Source: Shinella granuli
GTDB lineage: Bacteria; Pseudomonadota; Alphaproteobacteria; Rhizobiales; Rhizobiaceae
Direction of reading: 5' to 3'
Assembly (NCBI RefSeq): GCF_004341885.1
Contig: NZ_SLVX01000007.1
Location: forward strand, 186,001-250,000
Length of the DNA: 64,000 nt
How positions within the stretch are numbered: the first letter of the stretch is position 1; each line of letters opens with the position of its first letter. The position numbers were made by a program, and so were the translations under genes. Positions 9,914-50,497 of the stretch are shown piece after piece. Below the pieces are notes generated by a model. That model worked only from the letters and a program-made list of their open reading frames with translations, had not been told where the DNA came from and ran no database searches.

Positions 9914-9960
9914 GCCTGTCGTTCTCGCAAAACCGCTGGGCACTTTTGTGTGCGACATGC
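9914..9960 (+). repeat. Covarying-stem intergenic hairpin, copy A
   Basis: One of four related elements in the window (others at 35843, 47640 and 50453). The core reads CGCAAAACCGCTGGGCACTT. The ends pair: GCCTGTCG at 9914-9921 against CGACATGC at 9953-9960, with one mismatch. It lies between the starts of the TraB gene and the end of xerC, in a stretch (9828-10017) with no other feature I can identify. Similarity to copy B also extends about 30 bases to the left. Confidence 0.75.
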
Positions 9961-10017
9961 TCTAGTCCGGTTGCCCCTCACAATCCCTTAACGGCCTGTG
10001 CCCTTGACGAAGCGGCC

Positions 10018-10953
10018 TCATGCCCGCGGATGGGCGCGGTCGTAGATTTCGAGCAGCCGGGCGGAATCGACACCGGTATAGACCTGCGTGGTGGAAAGGC
10101 TGGCATGGCCGAGCAGTTCCTGGATGGTGCGCAGATCGCCGCCGCCGGCCAGCAGGTGCGTGGCGAAGGAATGGCGCAGCGCGTGCGGCGTCGCGCTGTC
10201 CGGCAGGCCGAGGGCACCGCGCAGCTTCTGCATCTCCCGCTGGATGATTGCCGGTTGCAGGGGGCCGCCGCGCGCGCCGCGGAAGAGCGGTTTGTCCTCT
10301 GCCAGCGGGAAGGGGCAGAGTTTCATGTAATCCTCGACGCCGGCAAGGGCTGGGGCGATCAGCGGCACGATGCGGGTCTTGTCGCCCTTGCCGGTGATGC
10401 GCAGCGCGGTCGGCGTGCCGGCGAAATCGGCCGGCGTCAGCGACAGCGCCTCGGAAATGCGCAGGCCGCAGCCGTAGAGGAGCGTCAGGACAGCGGCGTT
10501 GCGCAGGCGGATCCACGGTTCCTCGGCCAGTTGTTCATGGGCGTCGACGACGGCGATCGCCTGCCGGTCGGAGAGCGGCTTCGGCAGCGATTTCGGCTGT
10601 TTCGGCGAGCGCACCGCCGAAGCGCCGGCGGCATTGGCAAGGCCCTTGCGCTCCAGGTGGCGCAGGAACGAACGCAGGCCCGCAAGGCCGCGGCCGAGCG
10701 TGCGCGCACCCGCGCCGTCGCGGCGCCGGGCCGCGAGGAAGCCGCGCAGGTCTGCCGGCCGCAGGTCGTCGATGTCCTTGAGCCGCGCCGGGGTGGCAAG
10801 GTGCTGCGTCAGGAAGGCAAGGAACTGGCGGGTGTCGCGCTCATAGGCGTCCAGCGTGTTGTCGGAAAGCCGTCGCTCCTCCGCCAGCGCGGCGAGCCAG
10901 CCCTGGCGCTCGGCCATCAGTGTCGGGTCGGCGATGATGAGGAGATCGGTCAT
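10018..10953 (-). CDS. xerC: Tyrosine recombinase XerC
   Basis: A 311-aa site-specific recombinase that resolves chromosome dimers at dif together with XerD. Domains: an N-terminal SAM-like core-binding domain (about 15-105) and a C-terminal catalytic domain. All catalytic residues are visible: R165 (GCGLRISEAL), K190, H257 and R260 (HALRHSFATHLL), H283 (LGHASLS) and the nucleophile Y292 (QVYTGVD). The length and the AHPRA end fit chromosomal XerC rather than a phage integrase, and rhizobia commonly place xerC beside priA. Start ATG at 10953. Confidence 0.92.
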   Translation of the reverse strand: MTDLLIIADPTLMAERQGWLAALAEERRLSDNTLDAYERDTRQFLAFLTQHLATPARLKDIDDLRPADLRGFLAARRRDGAGARTLGRGLAGLRSFLRHLERKGLANAAGASAVRSPKQPKSLPKPLSDRQAIAVVDAHEQLAEEPWIRLRNAAVLTLLYGCGLRISEALSLTPADFAGTPTALRITGKGDKTRIVPLIAPALAGVEDYMKLCPFPLAEDKPLFRGARGGPLQPAIIQREMQKLRGALGLPDSATPHALRHSFATHLLAGGGDLRTIQELLGHASLSTTQVYTGVDSARLLEIYDRAHPRA

Positions 10954-10995
10954 GTCCTGCCCTTTGGCGTTTGCCGGAGCATGGGCGATTTCCGC

Positions 10996-11010
10996 TTAAG
11001 GTTTTGCTAA
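10996..11010. promoter_or_regulatory. CtrA-like box between xerC and the ATPase gene
   Basis: TTAA-N7-CTAA, seven of eight positions of the TTAA-N7-TTAA box bound by the alphaproteobacterial cell-cycle regulator CtrA. It sits 43 bases before the xerC start and 90 before the divergent ATPase start. One near-match can arise by chance, so this is a candidate only. Confidence 0.3.
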
Positions 11011-11099
11011 CGTTCGCGTCGGGGCTGGGCAAAGCGGCCCGCCTTCCTCTAGACACGGTGGCTGGTATAGAGAGGGTCTTTCTCCATTCCGGGACCATC

Positions 11100-12236
11100 A
11101 TGCTTTTGCGTTCCATGTCTGCCGAAAACTATCGTTCGCTGCGCTCGATCCGCATGGATCTCGGGCGTGTGAACCTGTTCGTCGGCGAGAACGGGGCGGG
11201 GAAATCGAACCTCTACCGATCGCTGCAACTGGTGCAGGCCGCGGTGCGCGGCAGTTTCGCCCATGAGATCGCGGCGGAAGGCGGCATGGCTTCGGCGCTC
11301 TGGACGGGCAGGCGGCGAGGGAACGAGCCGGTTCGCATCCGCCTTGAGACCGAACTGCTCGACGAGGACCGGGCGATCACCTTCCGTTACCGCGTGGAGG
11401 CCGGGTTGCGCCCGCCGAAGGCCGCCGCGGGCTTTGCCTTCGAGCCGCAGGTCAAGGCGGAGGAACTGACCATCGAGACCGGGCGGCGGCCGGTGACGGT
11501 GATGAAGCGCGCCGGGCCGGGCATCCTAGTGCGCGACGAGACCGGCCGCATGGTCGAGCATCCCGAACAGGCGCTGACCTCGGAAACGGCCATCGCGCTG
11601 CTCGGCGATGCCGGGCATTACCCGGAGATTGGCACTTTCCGCCGCGCCATCTCGCAATGGCGCTTCTTCCACGGCTTCCGCTCCGATCGCGATTCGGCCC
11701 TGCGCCAGCCCTGCCTTGCCGTCACCGCGCCGCTGCTCGACCAGGACGGAGCCAATATGGCCGCCGTCTTCGCGACGCTCACCTGGACGCGGGAAGATAC
11801 GCTCGACCTCGACCGGGCGGTGGCGGACGCGTTCGGCGGGGCGCGGCTTTCCGTGCCGGAGCCGGAGGAGTTCGCCTCCTACGGGCTGGTGTTCCCGCAG
11901 TTTCCCCAGCGCGTCTTCCAGCCGCGCGAGCTTTCGGACGGGCAGATCCGCTTCCTGGCGCTCGCCGCGGCCCTTCTCTCCTATCGCACGCCGCCGCTGA
12001 TCGCGCTGAACGAGCCGGAAGCAAGCCTCCATCCGGACATGCTGGCACCGCTTGCCGACATGATCGCGCGGGCCGCGCAGTCGAGCCAGCTCTGGATCGT
12101 CACCCATTCCGAGCGGCTGGCACAGGAGGTGGAGACGCGCTGCGGCGTCCGGGCGAAGCGGGTCGTGCGCAATGACGGGGCGACCTGGATCGACGGCATG
12201 CGGCTGACGGGCGAAATGGCCGGGGACGACGAATGA
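11100..12236 (+). CDS. RecF/SMC-like AAA ATPase (COG4637 type)
   Basis: A 378-aa predicted ATPase of the ABC/RecF/SMC-like group. Seen: the N-terminal LLRSMSAENYRSLRSI strand-helix typical of such ATPases, Walker A GENGAGKS at 29-36, an LSDGQIRFLALAAAL signature region near 280, Walker B IALNEPEASLHPD, and the switch-His segment WIVTHSERLA. No nuclease domain (TOPRIM) is fused and no partner gene overlaps. I chose ATG 11100 because it begins MLLRSMSAENY; ATG 11115 is the alternative. Function is unknown: related ATPases serve in DNA repair, recombination or defence. It lies between divergent xerC and downstream priA. Confidence 0.82.
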   Translation: MLLRSMSAENYRSLRSIRMDLGRVNLFVGENGAGKSNLYRSLQLVQAAVRGSFAHEIAAEGGMASALWTGRRRGNEPVRIRLETELLDEDRAITFRYRVEAGLRPPKAAAGFAFEPQVKAEELTIETGRRPVTVMKRAGPGILVRDETGRMVEHPEQALTSETAIALLGDAGHYPEIGTFRRAISQWRFFHGFRSDRDSALRQPCLAVTAPLLDQDGANMAAVFATLTWTREDTLDLDRAVADAFGGARLSVPEPEEFASYGLVFPQFPQRVFQPRELSDGQIRFLALAAALLSYRTPPLIALNEPEASLHPDMLAPLADMIARAAQSSQLWIVTHSERLAQEVETRCGVRAKRVVRNDGATWIDGMRLTGEMAGDDE

Positions 12237-12297
12237 GCAGGCCGGCGGCGATCTTTGCGGTTTTCTTCGCACGGCGGCGGGGGCATCTTCGCGCCTG

Positions 12298-14502
12298 ATG
12301 ACCAGCGATTCGACCGACCTTTTCGGGGAAAGACTCTTTGCGCGCACGGTGCCCGTGATGGTGCCGGTGCCGACGCCCTTGCCCTATTCCTATTCGGTGC
12401 CGGAGGGCATGGCGGTCGAGCCGGGCTCGATCGTGCAGGTGCCGCTCGGCCCCCGGCTGGTGCCGGGTGTCGTCTGGGACGGCGGCGACGACGGCAAGGT
12501 CGATCCGAAGAAGCTGCGGCCGATCGAGAAGGTGTTCGATTGCCCGCCGCTCTCCAAGGAGATGCGCGATTTCCTCGACTGGGTCTCCGCATACACGGTG
12601 ACGCCGCCGGGCCTCGTTGCCCGCATGGCGCTGCGCGCGCCCACCGCCTTCGATCCCGAGCCGATGATCGAGGGGCTGCGCTTCACCGGCCACCGGCCGG
12701 AGCGGCTGACGAGCGCGCGTGAACGCGTGCTGGAGCTGATCGAGGACGGTGTTCCCTGGACGCGGTCCGGCCTTGCGCATGCCTCCGGCACCTCGACGAG
12801 CGTCATCGACGGGCTCGTGAAGCAGGGCACGTTCGAGACGGTCTTCCTGCCGCCGCCGCCGGTCGTGGCGCTGCCCGATCCGGACTATGTCGCACCGCGG
12901 CTCGAAGGGCCGCAGACGGAGAGCGCCGCGGAACTGGTCGAGAGCGTGCGGAAGGGTGAATTCTCCGTCTCGCTGATCGATGGCATCACCGGTTCGGGCA
13001 AGACGGAGGTCTATTTCGAGGCGATCGCCGAGACGCTGCGACGAGGGCGGCAGGTGCTCATCCTCCTGCCGGAAATCGCGCTGACGGCGAGTTTCCTGGA
13101 GCGGTTCCAGGATCGTTTCGGCGCCAAGCCCGCGGAGTGGCATTCCGATCTCGCCCCCCGCACCCGCGAGCGTGCCTGGCGGCAGGTGACGACGGGGGAT
13201 GTCCGGGTCGTGGCCGGCGCGCGCTCGGCGCTCTTCCTGCCGTTCGAAAATCTCGGCCTCATCATCGTCGACGAGGAGCACGACCCGGCCTACAAGCAGG
13301 AGGACCGCGTCTTCTACAATGCGCGCGACATGGCGGTGGTCCGGGCGCGCATCGGTGACTTTCCGGCCGTGCTGGTCTCGGCGACGCCTTCGGTGGAAAG
13401 CCGTGTCAACAGCGATGTCGGCCGCTACCGCAAACTGCACCTGCCAACGCGTTACGGCGATGCGGCGCTGCCGGACCTGCACCTCGTCGACATGCGGCGG
13501 CATCCGCCGGCGCGCGGCGGCTTCCTGTCGCCGGTCATGCTGCGCGGCATCCAGCGCACCATCGAGAAGGGTGAGCAGGCGCTGCTCTTCCTCAACCGCC
13601 GCGGTTATGCGCCGTTGACGCTCTGCCGGGTCTGCGGCCACCGCTTCCAGTGCCCGCAATGTTCGAGCTGGCTGGTCGAGCACCGTTTTCGCGGGCAGAT
13701 TCAATGCCACCATTGCGGTTATGCCGAGCGTACGCCGGAGGCCTGCCCGGAATGCGGCACCTTCGATCACCTCGCCGCCTGCGGGCCGGGGGTGGAGCGC
13801 ATCGCGGAGGAGGTGGAGCGGCATTTTCCCGAGGCGCGCACCATCGTGCTCTCCTCCGACCTGATGGGCGTGAAGCGGCTCAGGCTGGAGCTGGAGGCGA
13901 TCGCGCGCGGCGAGGCGGATATCGTCATCGGCACGCAGCTCGTCGCCAAGGGGCACAATTTCCCGCTGATGTCGCTGGTCGGCGTGGTGGATGCGGATCT
14001 CGGGCTTTCCAACGGCGACCCGCGGGCGGCCGAGCGGACCTTCCAGCTTCTTTCGCAGGTGACGGGGCGTGCCGGGCGTTCTGGCCTGAAGAGCCACGGC
14101 CTCATCCAGACCTACCAGCCGGCCCATCCCGTCATGCAGGCCATCGTCTCCGGCGATGCGACGGCGTTCTATGACCGCGAGATCGGCGAGCGGGAGAAGG
14201 CGCTGCTGCCGCCGTTCGGCCGGCTCGCCTCGGTCATCGTCTCGGCCGATAGCCGCGGCGAGGCGGAGGCGCATGCGCGGGGGCTGCGGCAGGCAGCACC
14301 GCAGGTCTCCGGCATCTCCATCCTCGGCCCGGCGGAGGCGCCGCTGGCGCTGATCCGCGGCCGCCACCGCTTCCGCCTCCTGGTGCACGGCCGGCGGGGC
14401 AGCGACATGCAGGCCTTCCTGCGCGCCATGCTGGCCAACGGGCCGAAGGAACGGGCCTCGCTGCAGGTGCAGCTCGACATCGATCCGCAGAGTTTCCTCT
14501 GA
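12298..14502 (+). CDS. priA: Primosomal protein N' (replication restart helicase)
   Basis: A 734-aa superfamily-2 DNA helicase that recognises stalled forks and reloads the replisome. Order: an N-terminal 3'-DNA-binding and winged-helix region (1-200), Walker A GITGSGKT near 225, the DEAH-like box VDEEHD near 323, the motif LVSATPSVES, and then two zinc sites formed by CRVCGHRFQCPQC...CHHCGY...CPECG near 440-485. The helicase C-lobe ends in VTGRAGRSG and the C-terminal domain closes with QLDIDP. Length and motif order fit PriA. It begins 61 bases after the ATPase gene; no strong ribosome-binding site is evident. Confidence 0.95.
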   Translation: MTSDSTDLFGERLFARTVPVMVPVPTPLPYSYSVPEGMAVEPGSIVQVPLGPRLVPGVVWDGGDDGKVDPKKLRPIEKVFDCPPLSKEMRDFLDWVSAYTVTPPGLVARMALRAPTAFDPEPMIEGLRFTGHRPERLTSARERVLELIEDGVPWTRSGLAHASGTSTSVIDGLVKQGTFETVFLPPPPVVALPDPDYVAPRLEGPQTESAAELVESVRKGEFSVSLIDGITGSGKTEVYFEAIAETLRRGRQVLILLPEIALTASFLERFQDRFGAKPAEWHSDLAPRTRERAWRQVTTGDVRVVAGARSALFLPFENLGLIIVDEEHDPAYKQEDRVFYNARDMAVVRARIGDFPAVLVSATPSVESRVNSDVGRYRKLHLPTRYGDAALPDLHLVDMRRHPPARGGFLSPVMLRGIQRTIEKGEQALLFLNRRGYAPLTLCRVCGHRFQCPQCSSWLVEHRFRGQIQCHHCGYAERTPEACPECGTFDHLAACGPGVERIAEEVERHFPEARTIVLSSDLMGVKRLRLELEAIARGEADIVIGTQLVAKGHNFPLMSLVGVVDADLGLSNGDPRAAERTFQLLSQVTGRAGRSGLKSHGLIQTYQPAHPVMQAIVSGDATAFYDREIGEREKALLPPFGRLASVIVSADSRGEAEAHARGLRQAAPQVSGISILGPAEAPLALIRGRHRFRLLVHGRRGSDMQAFLRAMLANGPKERASLQVQLDIDPQSFL

Positions 14503-14605
14503 CATGCGTGGTTAACAAAGAGTTGTGCGAACTTTCCCGGCGCGCTTCTGCCCGTCGCGGGCCTGTGCGATAGAGGGCGGCGGGCAGGCAAGGAGAGGCG
14601 CCGAG

Positions 14606-14989
14606 ATGGAATTCTACATCCCCACCGAGACGGGCGAGTTCCTGGCGTTCTGCGCTGCCATCGCGACCGTGCTTTTCGGCCTCTTCGCCCTCTTTGCGCC
14701 GGGCACGGCCTTGAAGCTCGCCGGTCTCCAGGTCCGGGACGGCACTTCGGAAGGATATGCCTTCGCCCGCTCGGCCGGCGGCTTTTATGCGGGGATCGCC
14801 ATCGTCGCGCTGCTGATGGCGCAGAGCTGGATCTACATGGCCATCGGCGGCGGTTTCGCGCTGGCCGCCTTCGGCCGCATCCTGTCGCTGATGTCGGACG
14901 GTTCCTTCACGCTCAAGAACCTTGCCGCGCTCGCCGCGCAGGCGGTGCTTGCCGCCCTGCCGCTCGGCTACGCCTTCGGCTTCCTCTGA
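14606..14989 (+). CDS. Small DUF4345-like membrane protein
   Basis: A 127-aa protein with about four hydrophobic helices (14-35, 55-75, 78-92 and 105-125). The GRILSLMSDG motif near 92-101 resembles the pattern of the DUF4345 family of four-helix inner-membrane proteins; the family match is by eye. The ATG at 14606 has a good Shine-Dalgarno (AAGGAGAGG) 11 bases upstream; the open frame to the left lacks one. Function is unknown. The following 261 bases up to atpH hold no gene. I see a small hairpin there (15204-15216) and no convincing promoter, although the atp operon promoter must lie there or upstream. Confidence 0.7.
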   Translation: MEFYIPTETGEFLAFCAAIATVLFGLFALFAPGTALKLAGLQVRDGTSEGYAFARSAGGFYAGIAIVALLMAQSWIYMAIGGGFALAAFGRILSLMSDGSFTLKNLAALAAQAVLAALPLGYAFGFL

Positions 14990-15250
14990 CCGGAAAACCG
15001 GCTTCCGGCCTCCATAAACGCCAGAACAGAGTGCGCGCAGTCAACTTTTGCCCCGACTGTGGCCGACTTATGGCGCATTCCTGCGTCCGGCGTGTTGCGA
15101 GTCCCGGTTTCGTATGCTAGACGAACCGCGAAATTCAGAAAAAGCGGGCGCCAAAGCCTGTAGGGACTGAAGATTACCGCAACGATTTCAAGTGGTTAGG
15201 ACCGTAGCTTCGCTACTGCCCGGCCTCTTGAATGAAAAGAAGAGAAGCTT

Positions 15251-17346: not shown

Positions 17347-17363
17347 GACCTAACGGTTCGAGC

Positions 17364-17386
17364 CCTGCGCGCCGCCGGCGCGCAGG
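17364..17386. other. Strong hairpin between atpA and atpG
   Basis: A perfect 10-bp stem (CCTGCGCGCC / GGCGCGCAGG) with a 3-base loop starts 18 bases after the atpA stop. There is no T-run, and atpG follows on the same strand, so this is more likely an intra-operon mRNA stability or processing element than a terminator. Confidence 0.6.
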
Positions 17387-17461
17387 CAGCCCGGGAACTT
17401 TGATTGACGCATGATCCGCTGAGGAGACCTCTCCCGGATCGTGTTACAGGACGGAAAACGG

Positions 17462-19899
<2,438 letters not shown>

Positions 19900-35820: not shown

Positions 35821-35842
35821 GCTGCCAGGCCTCTATTTCTGC

Positions 35843-35886
35843 GCGGTACCGGGAGCAAAATCGCTGCACACTTCTGCTGGAACCGC
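35843..35886 (+). repeat. Covarying-stem intergenic hairpin, copy D
   Basis: The core reads AGCAAAATCGCTGCACACTT. The ends pair: GCGGTACC at 35843-35850 against GGAACCGC at 35879-35886, with one mismatch. It lies between the GNAT start and the argJ stop and comes within one base of the argJ stop codon, so it could act as a 3' end structure for argJ. Confidence 0.7.
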
Positions 35887-35887
35887 T

Positions 35888-37120
35888 TTAGCTGCGATAG
35901 TCGCCGTTGATCTCGACATATTCCTTGGTGAGGTCGCAGGTCCAGACGGTCGCCTTGCCGGTGCCGAGGCCGATCTCGACGCGGACAGGGATGTCCTGGC
36001 GCTTCATGACGGCGGTGGCCGCCTCTTCGGAATAGGCGGGGTCGCGCTCGCCGTCGACGGCGACGCGCACGTCGCCGAACCAGATGGCGAGACGGTCGCG
36101 GTCGGCCATCTCGCCGGATTTGCCGACGGCCATGACGATGCGGCCCCAATTGGCGTCCTCGCCGGCAACCGCGGTCTTGACCAGCGGCGAATTGGCGATG
36201 GAGAGCGCGATGCGCTTGGCCGCCGCGTCGTTTTCGGCACCCTCGACGGTGATTTCCACCATCTTGCGCGCGCCCTCGCCGTCGCGCACGACCTGGAGCG
36301 CGAGGTCGCGCAAGAGGTCGTTCAGCGCCGCGCGGAAATCATCGAGCGCGGCATCGTCCGCGGTGACGGGCGCCTGGCCTTCGGCCGCGCCGGTCGCAAA
36401 AAGCATCAGCGTGTCGGAGGTCGAGGTGTCGCTGTCGACGGTGACGGAATTGAAGGTCGGGCCGGCGCCGGCCGACAGCAGCGATTGCAGCACCGGTGCC
36501 GGGATATCCGCATCCGTCACGACGAAGGAAAGCATGGTCGCCATGTCGGGCGCGATCATGCCGGCGCCCTTGGCGATGCCGTTGATGCGCACGGTGACGC
36601 CGCCGAGCTCGGCCGTGCGCGTGGCGACCTTCGGATAGGTGTCCGTCGTCATGATGGCCTTGGCGGCCTCGAACCAGAAGTCCTCCGTGCCGGAGGCGGC
36701 GAGGCTGTCGAGCACGCCGGAGAATTTCGTCGCGTCGAGCGGCTCGCCGATGACGCCGGTCGAGGCGAGGAAGACCTCGCCTTCGCTGCAGCCGACGGCC
36801 CCTGCGGCGGCTTCCGCGGTCATCTTCGTCGATTCGCGGCCCTTGCGGCCGGTGAAGGCGTTCGCATTGCCGGAATTGACCACCACAGCGCGGGCGATCC
36901 CGCCGGGCAGGTTGGCGCGGCAGAAATCGACCGGCGCCGAGGGGCACTTGGAGCGGGTGAAGACGCCGGCGACGGTTGCGGGGCGGTCGAACACCATCAT
37001 CAGCACGTCCGTCCGACCCTTGTACTTGATCCCGGCGGCGGCGGTCGCCATGCGCACGCCGCGCACCGGCGGCATCTCGGCATAGGTTTTGGGAGCGAGC
37101 GGAGAGAGGGAACCGGACAT
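35888..37120 (-). CDS. argJ: Glutamate N-acetyltransferase / amino-acid acetyltransferase
   Basis: A bifunctional-type ArgJ (410 aa) that transfers acetyl from N-acetylornithine to glutamate in the arginine cycle. The precursor cuts itself before the nucleophile Thr195 in the motif PDMATML (cleavage between Ala194 and Thr195). [12 protein letters not shown] and the C-terminal GDYRS end are family hallmarks. Whether it also uses acetyl-CoA (bifunctional) cannot be told by eye. The Shine-Dalgarno is AGGAAAG. It lies downstream of the parvulin gene but beyond that gene's terminator, so it probably has its own promoter. argH lies at the right end of the window. Confidence 0.95.
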
Positions 37121-38305: not shown

Positions 38306-41032
<2,727 letters not shown>

Positions 41033-41180: not shown

Positions 41181-41275
41181 AAGGGCGCGGCCCCCGCCAT
41201 CCAACCGTTTGTTAACCCTGATCTGACAAGACTGATCCTCGTTCAGTTCTGCGTTGCATACGGGTTCCTGTGTTG

Positions 41276-43961: not shown

Positions 43962-44002
43962 GGCCATTCCGGCCCGGTTCAATATTCGAAAGCGCTAAGG
44001 AA

Positions 44003-45646
44003 CTAGGCGGCGAACGGCGTTTCCTCCGCCGCCCGCTTGCGCAGGAGGTGGCGGATGACCTTGCCGGAGGTCGTCAGCGGCAAAGCATCGACGAAATCCA
44101 CCTCGCGCGGATACTCGTGCATGGAGAGCCGCGACTTCACCCAGTCGCGGATATCGCTGGCCAGGGCGTCCGAGGGCGCGTTGCCGGGGCGCAGCACCAC
44201 ATAGGCCTTGACGATTTCCGTGCGCACCGGATCGGGCTTGCCCACGGCGGCGGCGAGCTGCACGGCTGGATGGCCGGCCAGGCAATCCTCGATCTCGCTC
44301 GGCCCGATGCGGTAGCCGGAGGAGGTGATGACGTCGTCGTCGCGGCCGAAGAAGGTGACGTAGCCCTCCTCGTCCATGCGGCCGAGATCGCCGGTCGTCA
44401 TCCAGTCGCCAATGAATTTTTCCGCCGTTGCCTTCTCGTTCTTCCAGTAGCCGAGGAACATGACGGGATCGGGCCGTTTCACCGCGACCTGGCCGACGGT
44501 GCCGCGCGGCATTTCCCGGCCGTTCGCATCGATGATCGCCACCACATGGCCGGGCACCGGCTTGCCGATCGGCCCCGGTCGGGACACGCCGAGCTTGCCG
44601 ATCGAGCCGAGCACGATGTTGCACTCGGTCTGGCCATAGAACTCGTTGATGGTGATGCCCAGCGTGTCGCGCACCCATTCCCACGTCTCGCGGCCGAGCG
44701 ATTCGCCGGCCGAGCCGATGGTGCGCAGGTTGAGCCGGTATTTTTCACGGGGGTTCGCCACCGTTTTCATCAGCCGCAGCGCCGTCGGCGGGATGAAGGC
44801 GTTGCGCACGTCCATGTCCTGCATGATGCGATAGGCCATGTCGGGATCGAATTTCTGGCCCGGCGAGGAGACGACGGGCACGCCGAGCAGCAATGCCGGC
44901 AAGAGCACGTTGAGAAGCCCGCCCGCCCAGGCCCAGTCGGAGGGCGTCCAGATGCGGTCGCCCGGCTGCGGCAGGAATTCGTGATGCATCTGGAAGCCCG
45001 GCACATGGCCGAGCAGCACGCGATGGCCGTGCAGCGCGCCCTTCGGCGGGCCTGTCGTGCCCGATGTGTAGATCATCATGGCCGGATCGTCCGGGCCGCT
45101 GTCGACGGCCGCGAAGGGGCCGGCATGGCGGGCGACGAGGTCCTCGAAGGATTTTGCCGCGGCGTCTGTGCCCGGCTCGGTGGTGATCACCAGCGCAAGC
45201 GTCGGCAGCTCCGCCCGGATCGGCTGCAGGCGTTCCAGGCCGAAGCGATTGGTGACGATCGCCTTCGCCTCGGCATTCTTCAGCCGGAAGGAGAGCGCAT
45301 CGGCGCCGAAGAGCAAAGCGAGCGGCAGGGCGATGGCGCCGAGCTTGTAGATGGCCAGATGGGATATGACCGTCTCGAAACCCTGCGGCAGCAGGATGGC
45401 GACGCGGTCGCCGGCCTTCACCCCTTCCGCAGCAAGCGCGGCGGCGAAGGCGTCCGACCGGGCCGCGAGCGCGCCATAGGTGAGGGAGAGCGGCGGGGCG
45501 TCCGGCCGGAAATGCTCAAGACAGATCCGGTCCGGCGCGCGTGCCGCCCAGGCATTGGAAACCGCGGTGCCGATGTTGAAGCGCTCGGGGATCTGCCAGT
45601 GGAAATCCCGATACAGCGCATCATAGGTCGATCTTTCGGCGAGCAT
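44003..45646 (-). CDS. Acyl-CoA synthetase (AMP-binding)
   Basis: A 547-aa adenylate-forming enzyme of the acetyl/medium-chain acyl-CoA synthetase group. Seen: the AMP-binding P-loop YTSGTTGPPKG near 192-202, EFYGQTECN near 340, TGDLGRMDEEGYVTFFGRDDDVI near 420, and the C-terminal catalytic Lys in PLTTSGKVIR near 530. It activates a carboxylic acid to acyl-CoA via acyl-AMP; chain length is not readable. Convergent with the CelD-like gene, 41 bases apart. Confidence 0.9.
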   Translation of the reverse strand: MLAERSTYDALYRDFHWQIPERFNIGTAVSNAWAARAPDRICLEHFRPDAPPLSLTYGALAARSDAFAAALAAEGVKAGDRVAILLPQGFETVISHLAIYKLGAIALPLALLFGADALSFRLKNAEAKAIVTNRFGLERLQPIRAELPTLALVITTEPGTDAAAKSFEDLVARHAGPFAAVDSGPDDPAMMIYTSGTTGPPKGALHGHRVLLGHVPGFQMHHEFLPQPGDRIWTPSDWAWAGGLLNVLLPALLLGVPVVSSPGQKFDPDMAYRIMQDMDVRNAFIPPTALRLMKTVANPREKYRLNLRTIGSAGESLGRETWEWVRDTLGITINEFYGQTECNIVLGSIGKLGVSRPGPIGKPVPGHVVAIIDANGREMPRGTVGQVAVKRPDPVMFLGYWKNEKATAEKFIGDWMTTGDLGRMDEEGYVTFFGRDDDVITSSGYRIGPSEIEDCLAGHPAVQLAAAVGKPDPVRTEIVKAYVVLRPGNAPSDALASDIRDWVKSRLSMHEYPREVDFVDALPLTTSGKVIRHLLRKRAAEETPFAA

Positions 45647-45722
45647 CCGACGTCACTCCAGTTTGCTGCATTGCACCTAGCATTCCGGAGGGGCCGCCGG
45701 CAATGGCGGCTTTTCGCTGAAG

Positions 45723-45986
45723 TCAGAGCCAGGAGAGGCGGTTGTCCACCTCGCTGACTTCCTTGATCGCGGCGGCGACCGTCGTTGCCCGTTCCGCCTC
45801 CTCGGCGGAGCCGACGCTGCCGGAAAGGATGATCCGTGTGCCCTTGCAGGTCACGGTGATGTCGGAGGCGTCCACGTCGCCGGCGACGGACAATGCGTCC
45901 GCCACCTTCGTCTCCAGCCAGGCCGGGTGGGGTCCGTCGAAATGCTCGGGCGGTTCGCCCTTGAACGTACCTTCCTTGAAGACCAT
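45723..45986 (-). CDS. Small BON-domain protein
   Basis: An 87-aa single BON-domain protein. The domain covers about 22-86: WLETKVADALS, the DITVTCKGTRIILSGSVGSAEEAERA core with the invariant Gly of LSGSV, and AAAIKEVSEVDNRLSWL. It has no signal peptide, so unlike OsmY it looks cytosolic. BON domains bind phospholipid or act in osmotic and envelope stress. The Shine-Dalgarno AGGAG supports ATG 45986. A possible EcfG-type stress promoter lies directly upstream. Confidence 0.85.
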   Translation of the reverse strand: MVFKEGTFKGEPPEHFDGPHPAWLETKVADALSVAGDVDASDITVTCKGTRIILSGSVGSAEEAERATTVAAAIKEVSEVDNRLSWL

Positions 45987-46018
45987 GTCGCACTCCTCTT
46001 GCTCGGCTTCCGCAGGGA

Positions 46019-46043
46019 AACGCAGGGTGAGCCTATTTGTTCT
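46019..46043 (-). promoter_or_regulatory. Candidate EcfG (general stress sigma) promoter of the BON gene
   Basis: On the minus strand AGAAC - 16 bases - CGTT, one mismatch from GGAAC-N16/17-CGTT, the known promoter of the alphaproteobacterial general stress sigma EcfG/RpoE2. The -10 lies 33 bases before the BON start codon, a sensible leader length. Confidence 0.45.
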
Positions 46044-46380
46044 TTGTCGCTGAAGGAAGACGGGCGTCGCTCGACATCGACGGCCTTGCCCCCAAATGGT
46101 TGAGACCCAAGAGCGTGCACATCGCTCTCGGGTCCCCCTCCGCAACCACATCCGGGGGTGTCTGTCGTTGCATCGCGTAAATGCGGCCGTGCAAAATTTG
46201 TTCCTGCTAAAAAGCAAATTTTTTGAAGGGCTAGACGTGTTACAGGCAACCTTTGGCGGCCTCTCCTTCTTCAGTGCAGCGACGAATGCGGCAGATCGAT
46301 CTCGCAGGACGTGCCCTTCCTCGTGCGACCTAAACGATGCTTCATTCTTGACTCTTTGAGGACGCGTGGCAGGTTGCCTG
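46044..46380. other. Gene-free stretch with an AT-rich inverted repeat
   Basis: Between the BON promoter region and the next gene I see no credible gene. The open frame at 46096-46359 lacks a ribosome-binding site and any family-like pattern. The one structural feature is an AT-rich dyad AAAATTTG at 46193-46200 against CAAATTTT at 46215-46222 (14-base spacer) followed by extra T residues, which could be an operator or a weak terminator. The stretch is visibly less GC-rich than its surroundings. Confidence 0.5.
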
Positions 46381-46665
46381 ATGACGAAGAAACCAGAAAA
46401 CCGCTACGACAGGCGTGAGGACGGCACGGGCATGAGCACTAAGGCCGACATCGACGCCCTCCAGCTTGAACTCTGGGCCACGCAATACTGGATGAAATAC
46501 CTGTATGTCGCCCAGGCCAAAGGCGAGCGCATGCGGTCGGCCGACATTCTCGACCTCATCGAGGAATTGAAAGCGACCGCGCCGTCAGACGAGGCGGACC
46601 GCTTTCCGGTCTGTGAACGGGTGGGGCTGGAGATCGCCGCCCTGCTGAGAAAGGCGGGGAATTGA
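46381..46665 (+). CDS. Small protein of unknown function, first of a four-gene chain
   Basis: A 94-aa soluble, mostly helical protein; the section from residue 18 on (MSTKADIDALQLELWATQYWMKYLYVAQ) is rich in Trp and Tyr, with a charged C-terminal half containing one Cys. An internal start at 46432 (77 aa) has GAGGA upstream and is a serious alternative. I do not recognise a family. Its stop overlaps the TTG start of a 31-codon membrane peptide (TTGA), the beginning of a chain of coupled small genes. Confidence 0.65.
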   Translation: MTKKPENRYDRREDGTGMSTKADIDALQLELWATQYWMKYLYVAQAKGERMRSADILDLIEELKATAPSDEADRFPVCERVGLEIAALLRKAGN

Positions 46666-46757
46666 GAGCCTTCCACTCTTCTCCTCGCCGCTGGCTGGCC
46701 GTTGGTTTGCTGCTTGGTGCCATGCTCGCAATCGGTCTCTCGATTGGGTTGCCATGA
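46662..46757 (+). CDS. 31-aa single-pass membrane micro-protein
   Basis: A TTG-initiated reading frame of 31 codons overlapping the previous stop by four bases. The peptide has a basic start (RAFHSSPRRW) and one hydrophobic helix of about 20 residues (LAVGLLLGAMLAIGLSIGLP), so it would sit in the inner membrane. No separate ribosome-binding site is obvious, although AAAGGCGGGG at the end of the upstream gene could serve; translation is probably coupled. Its stop in turn overlaps the next start (ATGA). Confidence 0.45.
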   Translation: MRAFHSSPRRWLAVGLLLGAMLAIGLSIGLP

Positions 46758-46810
46758 GCCAAAGGATCGACTTCACCTTCAAGCTGTGCCGGGCCGCGGA
46801 GGCTATCTGA
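46754..46810 (+). CDS. Possible 18-aa leader peptide
   Basis: ATG at 46754 overlaps the previous stop (ATGA) and opens an 18-codon frame (MSQRIDFTFKLCRAAEAI) ending one base before the GTG start of the 235-aa gene. It may only serve to hand ribosomes to the next gene. Coding status is uncertain. Confidence 0.3.
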   Translation: MSQRIDFTFKLCRAAEAI

Positions 46811-46811
46811 C

Positions 46812-47519
46812 GTGTTGCGTAACCTCGACTTCAGTTCATGGCACAGCGTCCTTGTGACATTGATCGGGCTCGCTCTCTTCACCCTGATCAGCATAGGCAT
46901 CCGCCTGATCATGATGTTCACCATCCAGCAGCGCAGGGAACGGGTGAACCGCCAGATCAACGAGCGCCTGAAAACCCTCATTGCCGCCTACAAGACGTTA
47001 GGCGGCTCATTCACGGGCAACCTTGCCGTCAATCCCACCCATCTGCGCGACCTGCGCCAGCGCTCGGCGCCGATGAGCGAGCCGGAAACTGCGGAATTTC
47101 CGGCCGAGGGCATAATCGCCAGTTCGGAACGTAGCCGCCGCATCAGGGATGATGTCGAGGCGGCTCTTTCCGATATCATGCTTCTTGGGACCGAAGAGCA
47201 GGTTAGACTTGCGGAAAAGGCGGCGCGAGAACTCGTTGCCGGCCGGCCAGTGCATACCCAAGATCTCGTCGTGTCACTTCGCGCCTTCATCCGTGAGGCG
47301 CTCGATCTCGATCCGGTTCCGGCCGACGTGGCCATCCCGATGCAAGGCCCTGCACGCCCCTCATCTGGGGGAGGCCGCGCCAAAGGGGAGCGCGGGAAGG
47401 AAGGGGGCCGCGGAGGCGGCGGCGGTATGGGAATGGGCGGTGGAACGGGAGGAGGATCTGGTATGGGTGGCGATGCCGACGATGATCACACGGCGCCAGG
47501 TCGGCATGGAGTAAGATGA
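46812..47519 (+). CDS. Membrane-anchored protein with Gly/Met-rich C-terminal tail
   Basis: A 235-aa protein starting with GTG at 46812. One transmembrane helix lies at about 12-36 (SVLVTLIGLALFTLISIGIR), followed by QQRRERVNRQINERLKTLIAAYKTLGGSFTG, a helical positively charged juxtamembrane segment. A soluble domain (50-175) with SERSRRIRDDVEAALSDIMLLGTEEQVRLAEKAARELVAG comes next. The last 45 or so residues are almost only Gly, Met, Lys, Arg and Ser, then acidic. I recall similar proteins in mobile parts of proteobacterial genomes but no function. It is the end of the four-gene chain; hairpins follow. Confidence 0.75.
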   Translation: MLRNLDFSSWHSVLVTLIGLALFTLISIGIRLIMMFTIQQRRERVNRQINERLKTLIAAYKTLGGSFTGNLAVNPTHLRDLRQRSAPMSEPETAEFPAEGIIASSERSRRIRDDVEAALSDIMLLGTEEQVRLAEKAARELVAGRPVHTQDLVVSLRAFIREALDLDPVPADVAIPMQGPARPSSGGGRAKGERGKEGGRGGGGGMGMGGGTGGGSGMGGDADDDHTAPGRHGVR

Positions 47520-47585
47520 TGCGCGATCATATGGGAGAAGCGTGAACGCCGAACCCATCGCCAGACGGAAGAGGACGACGTATCG

Positions 47586-47622
47586 GAGCATTTCCGCTTT
47601 TCTTCGAGCCGCGAAAACGCTC
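47586..47622 (+). terminator. Imperfect hairpin followed by T-rich run
   Basis: GAGCATTTCCGC at 47586-47597 pairs with GCGAAAACGCTC at 47611-47622 in 10 of 12 positions and is followed by TAATTTTTTGTTTT. It could terminate the 46.4-47.5 kb gene chain. It abuts repeat copy C, and the two may be one composite element. Confidence 0.5.
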
Positions 47623-47639
47623 TAATTTTTTGTTTTAAC

Positions 47640-47683
47640 GCAATTCCAGACGCAGAACCGCTTCGCACTTTTGCTGGAATTGC
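47640..47683 (+). repeat. Covarying-stem intergenic hairpin, copy C
   Basis: The core reads CGCAGAACCGCTTCGCACTT. The ends pair perfectly over 9 bp: GCAATTCCA at 47640-47648 against TGGAATTGC at 47675-47683. It lies 18 bases before the start of the 85-aa membrane protein gene. Compared with the other copies, the core is conserved but the arm sequence is different. Confidence 0.8.
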
Positions 47684-47700
47684 TCCAGGGTAGCTGAACG

Positions 47701-47958
47701 TTGCGGATTTTCCTCGGGCTCATCGCCATCATCGTTGGTGCCATTGTGCTGGCCATCCTGACAGTCGATTCCTGGCTTGTGATCGGAGAGCGTGCCCAGG
47801 GCGGACACGCGCCCCGCACCGCTGCGGAACAGACTGCGGCGGAAGAGCGCGCCAAGGCCAGCCAAGCTGAGGCAATCAAGGCTGCGGACGAGGCAATGAA
47901 TGCGATAGACGGTCACGTCGAAGACGGAATGGCCGGACGCAAGGGGACGGCGCATTGA
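47701..47958 (+). CDS. Small membrane-anchored protein with helical tail
   Basis: An 85-aa protein from a TTG start. One transmembrane helix (about 2-21, RIFLGLIAIIVGAIVLAILTV) is followed by an Ala/Glu/Lys-rich segment (TAAEQTAAEERAKASQAEAI-type) likely to be a coiled coil. The Shine-Dalgarno is weak (CCAGGG). I do not recognise a family. It lies between repeat C and the integrase remnant within the accessory stretch. There is no alternative ATG before residue 66. Confidence 0.5.
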   Translation: MRIFLGLIAIIVGAIVLAILTVDSWLVIGERAQGGHAPRTAAEQTAAEERAKASQAEAIKAADEAMNAIDGHVEDGMAGRKGTAH

Positions 47959-47982
47959 GCGCTAAGCGGCGGGTCTCCCGCA

Positions 47983-48165
47983 TTGCGGCGTTCATGGCGC
48001 CACCGGGCGTCGCTCACCGGCCACGTAACCTCAAAAGAAGCCATCCGCTACACGAAAGCAGCCGAGCAAAAACGACTCGCCAAGGCAGCAATAGACCTCA
48101 TCGGCCGGCTAGACGAGGAGGATGCGGGTGAGGACGAAACCGAGAACAAAAGTGTCCAGAAATAA
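47983..48165 (+). pseudogene. C-terminal remnant of a tyrosine integrase
   Basis: A 60-codon frame whose centre, TGHVTSKEAIRYTKAAEQ, followed by KRLAKAAIDLIGRL, matches the extreme C-terminus of phage/element tyrosine integrases: the GH of the last catalytic box, the nucleophile Tyr (IRYTKAA) and the conserved (D/E)Q-KRLA helix. The rest of the integrase, including the Arg and HxxR boxes, is missing upstream, and the sequence just before TGH is shifted or scrambled. It lies 67 bases from the 3' end of tRNA-Leu, the usual place for an integrase. Confidence 0.65.
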
Positions 48166-48207
48166 GGACTGTGCTTCCCTGACGGGCGAAGAAAGCCCAA
48201 AAAACAA

Positions 48208-48226
48208 GGAAAAACCACGCGGTTTT
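48208..48226 (-). terminator. Terminator of tRNA-Leu
   Basis: On the minus strand AAAACC-GCGT-GGTTTT followed by T, starting 7 bases after the tRNA 3' end: a 6-bp stem, 4-base loop and five-T run. A second T-rich run (TTGTTTTTTGGG) follows. Confidence 0.75.
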
Positions 48227-48232
48227 CGCTGT

Positions 48233-48317
48233 TGGTGCCCCATGCCGGAATCGAACCAGCACTCCTTTCGGAACTCGATTTTGAGTCGAGCGCGTCTACC
48301 AGTTCCGCCAATGGGGC
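48233..48317 (-). tRNA. tRNA-Leu (anticodon CAA)
   Basis: An 85-base leucine tRNA read on the minus strand. Acceptor stem GCCCCAT / ATGGGGC, discriminator A, encoded CCA end. Anticodon stem CTCGA / TCGAG with loop CTCAAAA, so the anticodon is CAA, decoding UUG. A long variable arm (GTTCCGAAAGGAGT region) and T-loop GGTTCGATTCC confirm a class II leucine tRNA. An integrase remnant lies beyond its 3' end. Confidence 0.95.
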
Positions 48318-48479
48318 ACGGCACTTGCAGCCATCGCCGTTTACACGAAGCATCCGTGGGCGGCAACCGGCAAATCCCCCTTGCGTGGACGATCACTTGT
48401 TTGTGCGGGTGATTTACAACGCCGCCTCACCTGATAGAACTCGGCGCCGTTTCGTCGGCATCCTCGCCGGCCCGATTGG

Positions 48480-48998
48480 ATGATGCTGATGACCGCACCT
48501 CTCGACCTTTCCCGCAGGATTTCCGCAGGTCTCCTGACGCTCGGCATGGCGGCGACCGTGGGTGGGGCGCTCGGCTTCGAGCATATCGGCGGCTACATTC
48601 CCTGCGCGCTCTGCCTGTTGCAGCGCGATCCCTATTATTACGGCATTCCGGTCGCGATCGCCGCGCTGCTGTCGGCGCTTTTCGGCGGCCCGGCCTGGCT
48701 GACGCGGCTGCTGCTCGCTGTCGCAGGCATCATGATGCTCGTCGGCGCCGGCATGGGCGTCTATCATGCGGGCGTGGAGTGGGGTTTCTGGGAGGGGCCT
48801 GCGACCTGCGCGACCTCGGCGCAGGGCGTCACGCAGAATGCCGGCGATCTCCTCGCCGACCTCAACGCCAAGCACGGGCCGTCCTGCACGCAAGCGTCCT
48901 TCCGTTTCCTCGGCCTGTCCTTCGCCGGCTGGAATGTGATCGCAAGCCTCATCCTCGCCGCGATCGCCTTCTCGGGCGTGCGGTCGGCGAAAGCCTGA
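48480..48998 (+). CDS. dsbB: DsbB-family disulfide bond formation protein
   Basis: A 172-aa inner-membrane protein of the DsbB family that passes electrons from periplasmic thiol oxidation to quinone. Four hydrophobic helices are visible. The first periplasmic loop has C42-x-x-C45 (PCALCLLQRD, with the conserved Gln-Arg), and the second has C110 and C136 (GPATCATS, GPSCTQAS). ATG 48480 is followed by in-frame ATGs at 48483 and 48489, so the exact start is uncertain. No dsbA is adjacent. Confidence 0.9.
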   Translation: MMLMTAPLDLSRRISAGLLTLGMAATVGGALGFEHIGGYIPCALCLLQRDPYYYGIPVAIAALLSALFGGPAWLTRLLLAVAGIMMLVGAGMGVYHAGVEWGFWEGPATCATSAQGVTQNAGDLLADLNAKHGPSCTQASFRFLGLSFAGWNVIASLILAAIAFSGVRSAKA

Positions 48999-49068
48999 TA
49001 TCCCCGCAACCCGGTCGCAAATGCCTATGGGTGCCGCAAAAACGCCTGGCGTTTCTGCGGTTCCGGCA

Positions 49069-49626
49069 TCAGGGCTGCAGTTCGACGTCCCAGTAGAGAT
49101 AGTCCATCCAGCTTTCGTGCAGATAGTTGGGTGGAAACAGTCGCCCGTTGTTGTGCAGATCCTGAACCGTCGGATGGTAGGGCTTCTGATGCGGGTGCAT
49201 GCCCGCCTGCTTCGGCAGCTTGCTGCCTTTTCTCAAATTGCACGGGGAGCAGGCCGCGACCACGTTGCACCATGTCGTCTCGCCGCCATGGGCGCGCGGG
49301 ATGACATGGTCGAAGGTCAGGTCGTCCGGCGACCCGCAGTACTGGCATTCGAACTTGTCGCGCAGGAACACGTTGAACCGGGTGAAGGCCGGGTGGCGTG
49401 ACGGCTGCACGTATGTTTTCAGGCACACGACGCTCGGCAGGCGCATCGTGAAACTCGGGGACGATACCGAATGGTCGTATTCGGCGATGATGTTTACACG
49501 GTCTAGAAACACGGCCTTGATCGCGTCCTGCCAGGACCAGAGCGACAAGGGGTAATAACTCAGCGGCCTGTAGTCAGCATTCAGTACAAGGGCTGGCAGG
49601 GCCTGTGGTGAAACAGAAATCGTCAA
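49069..49626 (-). CDS. HNH endonuclease
   Basis: A 185-aa protein with a C-terminal HNH nuclease domain (about 88-135): zinc-binding C94-x-x-C97 (CQYCG) and C126-x-x-C129 (CSPC), catalytic D106-H107 (FDHVIPRAHGG) and N121. The N-terminal LVLNADYRPLSYYPLSLWSWQDAIKAVFLDRV is conserved in a widespread housekeeping HNH family (parts: LNADYRPLSYYPLSLW, AVFLDRV). Its role is unknown; the wide conservation argues against a phage or restriction origin. Confidence 0.88.
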   Translation of the reverse strand: MTISVSPQALPALVLNADYRPLSYYPLSLWSWQDAIKAVFLDRVNIIAEYDHSVSSPSFTMRLPSVVCLKTYVQPSRHPAFTRFNVFLRDKFECQYCGSPDDLTFDHVIPRAHGGETTWCNVVAACSPCNLRKGSKLPKQAGMHPHQKPYHPTVQDLHNNGRLFPPNYLHESWMDYLYWDVELQP

Positions 49627-49731
49627 GGGCTTCTCCTGATCGATTCGGCATCTGCCCTTCTATATTAGGCCCGTTGTTACAGCATTGTGAAGCGGGAAAG
49701 GAAAAGCGAAAACAAGCTATTTCGCGAAGGC

Positions 49732-50388
49732 TCAGCCTTCGAGCACCGGCGCCGCCTCGCGTCGCATCTCCCGCGAATAATAGGCCCAGAACAGCCGGGC
49801 CGAGACGCCGCGCCAGGGCGACCAGCCCTCCGCGATCCGGTCGAGTTCCTGCGGGCTCGGGCGCACGGCAAGGCCGAGCGCATGGGCGACCGCATTCTGC
49901 AGCGCGATATCGCCGGATGGGAAGATATCCGGATGGCCGCCGCAAAAGAGCAGGTAGACATCCGCCGTCCAGCGGCCGATGCCCTTGATGGCGGTCAGCC
50001 GCCGCGTGGCCGCCGCCGCTTCCATGCGGCAGACGGCGTCGAGGTCGAGTTCGCCGCGATCGACCACCTCGGCGGCGCGGCGCAGCGTCTCCGCCTTGGC
50101 GCGCGACAGACCCACCGTGCGACAGTCCTCGTCGGACAGGGCGAGGATGTGGTGGGGGGTGATGTCGCCGGCCGCCTCCTCGAGCCGGTGCCAGATGGCA
50201 TCGGCGCTGGCGCGCGAGACCATCTGTGCGACGATGATGCCGGCAAGGCCGCGATAGCCGGGCGAAAGGCGCCGCAGCGGCACGGGGCCGGCCTTGTCGA
50301 TGACGGTGAAAAGACGCGCGTCGAGCAGGGCGAGATCGACGAGACCCGCCGCGACATCCGCATCCGTCCTGATCATGTGCAACTGCAT
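49732..50388 (-). CDS. DNA-3-methyladenine glycosylase II (AlkA-type)
   Basis: A 218-aa HhH-GPD superfamily base-excision glycosylase. Seen: helix-hairpin-helix LTAIKGIGRWTA (131-142) and catalytic D160 (FPSGDIALQ), with VAQMVSRASADAIW in the N-terminal helical part. It removes alkylated bases such as 3-methyladenine. ATG 50388 gives MQLHMIRTD; ATG 50376 is an alternative. It is divergent from gluQ; repeat copy B stands in the gap. Confidence 0.87.
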   Translation of the reverse strand: MQLHMIRTDADVAAGLVDLALLDARLFTVIDKAGPVPLRRLSPGYRGLAGIIVAQMVSRASADAIWHRLEEAAGDITPHHILALSDEDCRTVGLSRAKAETLRRAAEVVDRGELDLDAVCRMEAAAATRRLTAIKGIGRWTADVYLLFCGGHPDIFPSGDIALQNAVAHALGLAVRPSPQELDRIAEGWSPWRGVSARLFWAYYSREMRREAAPVLEG

Positions 50389-50452
50389 TTTCCCGAGTGG
50401 CCTCGACCCTTGCTGCCACGGCAACCCTTGCGCCTCAGGTCCCTGATTTTCC

Positions 50453-50497
50453 GCATGCCGTTGTCGCAAAACCGCTGCGCACCTTTGTGCGGCATGC
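50453..50497 (+). repeat. Covarying-stem intergenic hairpin, copy B
   Basis: The core reads CGCAAAACCGCTGCGCACCT. The ends pair perfectly over 8 bp: GCATGCCG at 50453-50460 against CGGCATGC at 50490-50497. It lies between the divergent glycosylase and gluQ starts. About 30 bases to the left it also resembles copy A (CTTGCGCCTCAGGTCCCTGA against CCTGCGCTTCAGGGCCTTGA). Confidence 0.8.

What the first reader, a model, noticed from the sequence alone, without database searches (positions are those of the whole stretch)
9914..50497. Family of four hairpins with conserved core and covarying stems
Copies at 9914-9960, 35843-35886, 47640-47683 and 50453-50497 share the core CGCAAAACCGCTGCGCACTT (one to three changes each) and similar length (44-47 bases), all in the same orientation on +. 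Their terminal arms differ: GCCTGTCG/CGACATGC, GCGGTACC/GGAACCGC, GCAATTCCA/TGGAATTGC, GCATGCCG/CGGCATGC. Yet within each copy the arms pair, perfectly or with one mismatch. Compensatory change of this kind is the signature of selection on a folded RNA or DNA, not of inert debris. Copies A and B are also alike for about 30 bases on the left. They flank xerC, argJ, a membrane gene and gluQ. I recall related intergenic repeats in rhizobia, but not a function.
Basis: partly seen in the sequence, partly recalled or inferred. Interest (0 to 1): 0.72.

Follow-up and report, generated by a model that had tools for sequence, protein, structure and literature searches.

The report
Hairpin remnants of tiny IS630-type transposons
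The four hairpins are worn right-hand halves of a roughly 106-base jumping element that has no genes of its own, appears to borrow the transposase of IS630-type insertion sequences, and lands in the rare sequence CTAG, often exactly at the stop codons of genes; their matched arms are real, but mostly a property of the mobile element rather than proof of a host regulatory RNA.

Summary
In detail: four related hairpins at the stated places (4 matches, 0.02 expected). They belong to a family of over 100 copies in this genome, present in 21 of 21 genomes searched of its genus (apparently Shinella) and in many other Alphaproteobacteria. The hairpin is the right arm of a ~106-bp unit: left arm with a GANTC site, T-rich linker, right arm, CTAG-like ends. 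In relatives the empty site is often a single CTAG (16 of 30 rows); end sequences fit duplication of TA. Ends resemble those of IS630 insertion sequences in the same bacterial family. I read it as an IS630-type MITE with the architecture published for the CcrM-associated intergenic repeats (CIR), whose mobility a 2007 review called unresolved. Arm covariation is real (64 compensated cells, 10.9 by shuffling), but G·U and A·C mismatches are about equal (89, 99), orientation to genes is random, and old copies decay. This fits pairing kept in mobile lineages better than a one-strand RNA function; a weak transcribed-strand G·U excess (62 to 39) stays open. CTAG is about 15-fold depleted and mostly non-coding, which helps explain the positions. 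Known kind; the assignment and mechanism seem new.

The parts
9856..9965 (+). Copy A: full but decayed unit of subfamily 2 (left arm and linker 9856-9911, right-arm hairpin 9914-9960, terminal CTAG 9962-9965), between the gene at 8745-9827 (-) and xerC at 10018-10953 (-)
   Evidence: left end CTGAAACGCGTC has 2 mismatches in 12 to CTAAAGCGCGTC
9879..9883 (+). GATTC (GANTC, CcrM-type site) in the left arm of copy A
   Evidence: read; such sites in the left arm of 57 of 87 units
35833..35891 (+). Copy B: right arm only (hairpin 35843-35886) with a short leader; its right end CTTTAG holds the TAA stop codon of argJ (- strand, stop at 35888-35890); 13 of 21 genus genomes have no extra bases at this spot
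47583..47688 (+). Copy C: full-length unit of subfamily 1 (left arm GGAGCATTTCCGC.., linker, hairpin 47640-47683, end CTCCAG)
50425..50502 (+). Copy D: subfamily 2 right arm (hairpin 50453-50497) with remnant of linker and left arm, about 20 bp before the first ATG of the gluQ reading frame (50522)
   Evidence: several relatives carry an element in the opposite orientation or none at this spot

Best explanation
The hairpins are the right arms of copies of a ~106-bp non-autonomous transposable element (MITE). SHOWN: a unit with sharp ends, [C]TA-GAGCATTTCC...(left arm with GANTC)...TTTGTTTT...GCAATTCC-hairpin-GGAATTGCTC-TA[G], or TA-AAGC...GCTT-TA in subfamily 2; many near-identical copies with unrelated flanks in one relative; a single CTAG at many empty sites in relatives; end patterns that fit a 2-bp TA duplication; end sequences that resemble those of IS630-family insertion sequences of the same bacterial family. 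INFERRED: an IS630-family transposase binds the ends, cuts the unit out and pastes it into TA, preferring CTAG. Because CTAG is rare and lies mostly at TAG stop codons or between genes, and because the element starts with G or A after the TA, an insertion into a TAN stop codon recreates a stop (TAG or TAA), so such insertions are tolerated. The two arms are kept complementary in the mobile lineages (masters), perhaps because the palindromes help end recognition or make the copy harmless in a transcript; after insertion, copies mostly decay.
For: Copy number: 100 pattern matches in the own genome against 4 for the reversed control; 133 with the covariance model at E<=1, only 150 candidates scored. 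Mobility: of 19 high-scoring G011 copies fetched, 18 are full units with unrelated flanks; CTAG at the left end in 14 and at the right end in 17 of these 18. Empty sites: joined flanks of 14 units gave 30 spanning rows at 8 loci among the 30 loci fetched; the relative's own letters at the junction are CTAG in 16 of 30 (4 loci: 10 of 11, 3 of 3, 2 of 2, 1 of 2). TA duplication: of 31 units with TA at both ends, 12 have equal 4-mers; all 19 others fit N-TA-R ... Y-TA-N. IS630: paired TA-flanked ends (<=8 of 20 mismatches) in 16 of 41 IS630 loci against 0 of 105 control loci; 8 of 38 IS630 ends lie within 2 mismatches of a MITE end in 12 bases, against 20 of 1169 comparable background sites, p 9e-7; examples L435, L450, L458, and the single end in L418; three such proteins match NF033545 IS630 transposase. 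Placement: 308 of 309 copies outside gene interiors; the stop codon lies exactly at the element's right-hand TAG for 24 of 57, 36 of 58 and 41 of 78 genes ending into it (the middle set was picked by an exact ...TAG end). CTAG 326 seen outside elements against 5069 expected in 1.59 Mb; 69 are called stops and 182 other intergenic.
Against: No IS630 element with both ends matching the MITE was found in the same genome: the four-copy IS630 of G011 shares CTAGAG and little more with the units, and the good matches are in other genera or a single end (L418). TA versus 4-bp CTAG duplication rests on end statistics, since most intact targets are CTAG. At 4 of 8 loci the empty site is not CTAG today. 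At the B locus the near relative G008 has no insert while G015 has a degraded one, so loss or repeated insertion must be assumed. Lone right arms are common and are not simply explained by whole-unit transposition. The share of copies whose right end is a stop codon (41 of 107 in the genus set) exceeds the share of stops among free CTAG (69 of 326), so target choice alone may not explain the placement. The IS630 end search was seeded with TA[GA][AG]GC, so it cannot see IS630 elements with other ends; its controls used the same seed.
Confidence: 0.85

Rival explanations
1. The hairpin is selected in place as a structured RNA (3' end stabiliser, attenuator or small RNA).
For: Strong covariation. 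In tandem gene contexts, counted on the transcribed strand, G.U exceeds A.C 62 to 39 (binomial p 0.028 two-sided, permutation p 0.014 one-sided; sets: p 0.034, 0.045, 0.66). The stem of copy D and the left arm of copy C score as terminator-like in a simple scan of 46500-51500 (10 sites, 3.9 by shuffling).
Against: Overall G.U 89 to A.C 99 over four alignments; element orientation to genes random (32 same, 33 opposite in tandem contexts); copies are present in some relatives and absent in others, and sit where the insertion target is; one of three data sets shows no transcribed-strand signal.
Confidence: 0.12
2. The arms stay complementary through DNA-level correction (template switching in quasi-palindromes), not selection; the element is otherwise a MITE.
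For: About equal G.U and A.C mismatches; wobble states are few across order and class (7 of 671 cells) while 91 cells changed on both sides. At the B locus G018 (GCAGTTCC/GGAACTGC) and G017 (GCAATTCC/GGAACTGC) differ by one step that turns an A.C mismatch into G-C or the reverse.
Against: One locus only; 87 one-sided changes against 41 compensated ones in the outer stem of the own genome show that correction, if any, is slow.
Confidence: 0.25
3. REP-type palindromes moved by a Y1 (RAYT/IS200-like) transposase.
For: Short intergenic palindromes in high copy; REP families exist in rhizobia (PMC3733652, passages).
Against: Y1_Tnp (PF01797) in 3 of 21 genus genomes, none in G000 or in G011 with its near-identical copies; target duplication and terminal inverted repeats are not REP traits (recalled).
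Confidence: 0.02
4. IS5-type MITE with 4-bp CTAG duplication, as MITEPsy1 of Pseudomonas syringae (100 nt, CTAG or YTAA, listed as 'IS5?'; PMC3189936, passages).
For: Same size and target; 12 of 31 units have equal 4-mers.
Against: 19 of 31 have unequal 4-mers that all fit TA duplication; ends match IS630 elements. IS5 ends in these genomes were not examined.
Confidence: 0.05

Closest known systems
CIR elements (CcrM-associated intergenic repeats; Chen & Shapiro 2003, original not held; described in PMC2229807, passages and section 7)
   Same: ~110 bp, two inverted-repeat arms joined by a linker, GANTC at the loop of one arm, TA at the termini, not found inside genes, alphaproteobacterial
   Different: The published sequences could not be compared letter by letter. 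The review's table lists no TIR and an unknown target duplication; here terminal repeats, TA duplication, CTAG target and IS630-like ends are found
RUP of Streptococcus pneumoniae (107 bp, 108 copies, proposed to be moved by IS630-Spn1; PMC2229807 and PMC3049150, passages)
   Same: Size, ~100 copies, TA target, IS630-like ends, non-autonomous
   Different: No sequence relation tested; in the passages seen RUP is not described with two arms, a GANTC site or CTAG/stop-codon placement
RIME and Sm/ABC repeats of Sinorhizobium (Osteras 1995, not held; mentioned in PMC2573895, PMC2245857, passages)
   Same: Rhizobial intergenic palindromic repeats; similar length recalled. A divergent copy lies in the S. 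meliloti chvI-chvG gap; the 1995 title places RIMEs in an essential two-component system, which I recall to be this one
   Different: That gap also holds another two-hairpin element, so which one is RIME1 could not be decided
MITEPsy1 of Pseudomonas syringae (PMC3189936, passages)
   Same: 100-nt MITE inserted at CTAG
   Different: Listed as IS5-like, other ends, 4-nt duplication
IS630 of Shigella and ISY100 (PMC2170065, passages and reference list)
   Same: TA target with TA duplication; IS630 prefers TA in CTAG (title of Tenzen & Ohtsubo 1991 in the reference list)
   Different: Autonomous elements with transposase

Membership tests
MITE of the IS630/Tc1-mariner family | short unit without coding capacity, with terminal inverted repeats | tested here: met
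   ~106 bp, ends CTAGAGCAWTTCC / GGAATTGCTCTAG
MITE of the IS630/Tc1-mariner family | TA target-site duplication | tested here: met
   19 of 19 units with unequal end 4-mers fit TA; the other 12 of 31 cannot discriminate; empty sites
MITE of the IS630/Tc1-mariner family | ends like those of an IS630 element | tested here: met
   best matches 11 of 12 bases in other genera, 12 of 12 for a single end (L418) in the own genome
MITE of the IS630/Tc1-mariner family | mobilised by that transposase | not testable with these tools
   bench test needed
CIR elements | two arms plus linker, ~110 bp | tested here: met
   compared with PMC2229807 section 7. The energy fold of one whole unit (L031) pairs its two ends instead
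CIR elements | GANTC in the loop region of one arm | tested here: met
   57 of 87 units, 52 sites at the same offset, against 3 of 87 control stretches; 30 of 87 lack it
CIR elements | never intragenic | tested here: met
   308 of 309 outside gene interiors by my own gene calls
CIR elements | sequence identity to published CIR1-CIR4 | not tested
   paper not held
RIME | identity to the element in the S. meliloti chvI/chvG region | tested here: inconclusive
   weak hit E 2.3e-4 there, next to another two-hairpin element; paper not held
REP/RAYT | Y1 transposase in genomes with many copies | tested here: not met
   3 of 21 genomes, not G000 or G011
Rfam RNA family | reaches a family's gathering score | tested here: not met
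   only a tRNA in the window

The most novel reading that the evidence does not exclude
The CIR/RIME-like intergenic repeats of Alphaproteobacteria are one superfamily of IS630 MITEs built as paired palindromes with a CcrM (GANTC) switch. The hemimethylated state just after replication licenses transposition, as Dam does for some insertion sequences (recalled), and stop-codon CTAG targeting makes insertions harmless, so these elements shape the 3' ends of very many genes.
Probability: 0.15. Interest if true: 0.75.

Novelty: new member of a known kind. Interest (0 to 1): 0.48.

Why it matters
A large class of intergenic repeats of unknown function in rhizobia and their relatives gets a mobility mechanism, a target site and candidate partner enzymes, which makes the question left open for CIR elements in PMC2229807 directly testable. 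It also shows why covariation within one genome is not proof of a regulatory RNA: a mobile palindrome gives the same signal. Small-RNA screens in Sinorhizobium had to discard many candidates because they fell in intergenic repeats of this general sort (PMC2573895, PMC2245857, passages).

Tried and rejected
Model R1 was built with a misplaced structure string and was not used; R2 replaced it. A first gene caller picked wrong strands and was replaced; counts cited come from the second, which is home-made and untested against annotation. One search was superseded. Literature: a search for the repeat's letters and for IS630 + miniature inverted-repeat + rhizobi (2 papers, a sulphur bacterium and a lichen fungus) gave nothing relevant, one search found none; searches showed no paper that names these repeats as IS630 MITEs, but most of those are capped lists (at most 20 shown, of up to 2,659 papers) in an open-licence library, read as listings, abstracts and the passages cited. 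REP/RAYT was rejected. The right-arm hairpins do not look like plain intrinsic terminators: the consensus T-run lies inside the hairpin; a simple scan of 46500-51500 scored copy D's stem and copy C's left arm. The transcribed-strand test was kept as inconclusive.

Rows dropped before counts: one search used 103 of 106 rows (two reverse-strand duplicates and one fragment); one search used 104 of 106; one search used 102, 100 and 107 of 106, 101 and 108 rows (named duplicates, fragments under about 40 bp, copies within 30 bp of another); searches used all rows (identical rows counted once in 102 and 103). Alignment A7 used 35 of the 38 order/class loci L149-L186 (L170, L183, L186 left out) plus L464. 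One search used 41 of 59 IS630 loci (those over 3.2 kb), all 59. The named set A5 holds the 80 stretches listed of 103 reported and is conditioned on an exact 3' half. The genus set A6 is centred mostly on top-scoring copies. One search fetched 30 loci of many more matches.
Full report
What is there. The four hairpins exist as described. Four matches to the core within three changes were found where 0.02 are expected. The own genome (G000, 6.59 Mb) has 47 forward and 53 reverse matches to the core with up to 3 mismatches, against 3 and 1 for the reversed control, and 133 matches to a covariance model of the hairpin at E<=1, with only 150 candidates scored. All 21 genomes of the genus that were searched hold 8 to 126 copies at E<=1e-4, again with 150 candidates scored each. 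At the same threshold 76 of 199 sampled genomes of the order and 13 of 142 of the class sample have a match, G000 included in both. Named genomes with an exact 37-base right half include Rhizobium, Shinella, Mesorhizobium, Neorhizobium, Aquamicrobium, Xanthobacter, Bosea and Hoeflea (103 stretches, 80 listed). The best plasmid-collection matches are Shinella.

The unit. Own copies range from full units to lone right arms. In the window A and C are full-length, B and D are right arms with little left. Subfamily 2 (A and D) has ends AAGC...GCTT and arms GCATGTCG/CGACATGC. A GANTC site sits in the left arm in 57 of 87 units, 52 sites at the same offset, against 3 of 87 control stretches.

Insertion. 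I joined the flanks of 14 units and searched the genus. Among the 30 loci fetched, 30 rows at 8 of the 14 loci span the junction; in 16 of them the relative carries a single CTAG exactly there (10 of 11 at one locus, 3 of 3, 2 of 2 and 1 of 2 at others); the remaining four loci show other letters such as CTAA, TCAG or CAG. Of 31 units with TA at both ends, 12 have the same 4-mer at both ends and 19 do not; all 19 fit a fixed element base inside and a free base outside the TA. This favours a 2-bp TA duplication. Window copy B lies at the stop codon of argJ. There 8 of 21 genomes have some 45-65 extra bases, clearly this hairpin in G000, G018 and G017 and degraded in the other five, and 13 have none; the near relative G008 is among those without (read by eye).

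Partner. IS630-family transposase genes (PF13358) match in 13 of 21 genus genomes, 10 over the cut-off, and in 83 of 151 family genomes, 78 over it. TA-flanked inverted ends were found around 16 of 41 such loci at <=8 mismatches in 20, and around 0 of 105 control loci searched the same way. Several match the MITE ends: L435 GAGCGTTTCCGC against GAGCATTTCCGC, L458 and L450 AAGCGYGTCGC against AAGCGCGTCGCG, and L418 in the own genome AAGCATGTCGCG as a single end. Within 2 mismatches of a MITE end: 8 of 38 IS630 ends against 20 of 1169 comparable sites (p 9e-7). In G011 an IS630 present in four nearly identical copies also lies between CTAG ends, but its inner ends differ from the MITE, so the exact partner is not identified.

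Placement. With my own gene calls, 308 of 309 copies are outside gene interiors. In G000 orientation is random (32 same, 33 opposite in tandem pairs; 24 convergent, 14 divergent, 1 inside). Of genes that end into the element's right end, 24 of 57, 36 of 58 and 41 of 78 in three sets have their stop codon exactly at its terminal TAG (the middle set was selected by an exact end). In 1.59 Mb of the genus CTAG occurs 326 times outside elements, against 5069 expected from base composition; 69 are called stop codons and 182 lie in other intergenic DNA. Insertion into CTAG therefore goes far to explain the intergenic and stop-codon positions without a host function, though the share at stop codons (41 of 107 copies) is higher than among free CTAG. 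The element begins with G or A after TA, so an interrupted stop codon is restored as TAG or TAA; this last step is inference.

Covariation. It is real: 64 both-sided Watson-Crick cells in 103 own copies, shuffles mean 10.9, maximum 22; 67 against 11.8; across order and class 91 against 18.4, with 97.9% of cells paired. Pooled, 24 different outer arms pair perfectly, in 219 of 366 rows. Selection on one RNA strand should favour G·U over A·C; the counts are 48 to 54, 17 to 19, 17 to 22 and 7 to 4. Counted on the transcribed strand in tandem gene contexts, G·U leads 62 to 39 (permutation p 0.014 one-sided, binomial 0.028); two sets show it (p 0.034, 0.045), the third does not (p 0.66). I take this as unproven. 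Outer-stem cells in G000 include 87 one-sided changes, so copies do decay.

Known relatives. A 2007 review (PMC2229807, passages and section 7) describes CIR elements: about 110 bp, two arms with a linker, GANTC in a loop, TA at the ends, intergenic, mobility unresolved. RUP of pneumococcus is the closest mechanistic parallel (PMC2229807, PMC3049150, passages). ISY100 shows TA insertion by an IS630-type transposase in vitro (PMC2170065, passages), and the title of Tenzen & Ohtsubo 1991 in its reference list states CTAG preference for IS630. A weak copy lies in the S. meliloti chvI-chvG gap, next to a different two-hairpin element, so the relation to RIME stays open.

Verdict. The element is a MITE of IS630 type with CIR architecture (0.85). 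A CcrM-timed transposition switch is the boldest reading that is left (0.15).

Noticed in passing
window 50425-50502 and L317, L322, L331: At the gluQ upstream spot, G020 and G012 carry a subfamily-2 type hairpin in the opposite orientation and G018 a full CTAAAGC...GCTTTAG unit (by eye): repeated insertion or inversion at one site.
   Followed up: partly
L464 3650-3860: The S. meliloti chvI-chvG gap holds a second two-hairpin element (GCATGTTTCC...AAAACATGC, then CTACAG...CTGTAG) directly beside a divergent copy of this family.
   Followed up: no
L424 / L297 (G011 C2 about 2106900-2108000): A MITE unit and an IS630 copy share one CTAG: nested or adjacent insertion.
   Followed up: no
L168, L540, L184, L157: Right-arm hairpins in tandem, three or four in a row, at about 60-bp (L168, L540) or about 127-140-bp (L184, L157) spacing, as if the arm alone can multiply.
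   Followed up: no
window, whole: CTAG occurs 14 times where base composition predicts about 202.
   Followed up: partly
L113, L112 (8358-8407), L066 (2665-2714): A possible third subfamily with arms GCATT..C / GGAAATGC and a different, GC-rich inner stem.
   Followed up: no
L041 right flank: A different inverted repeat (CCCCACCCTCTGTTGTCATCCTCGGG...) lies directly beside the unit.
   Followed up: no
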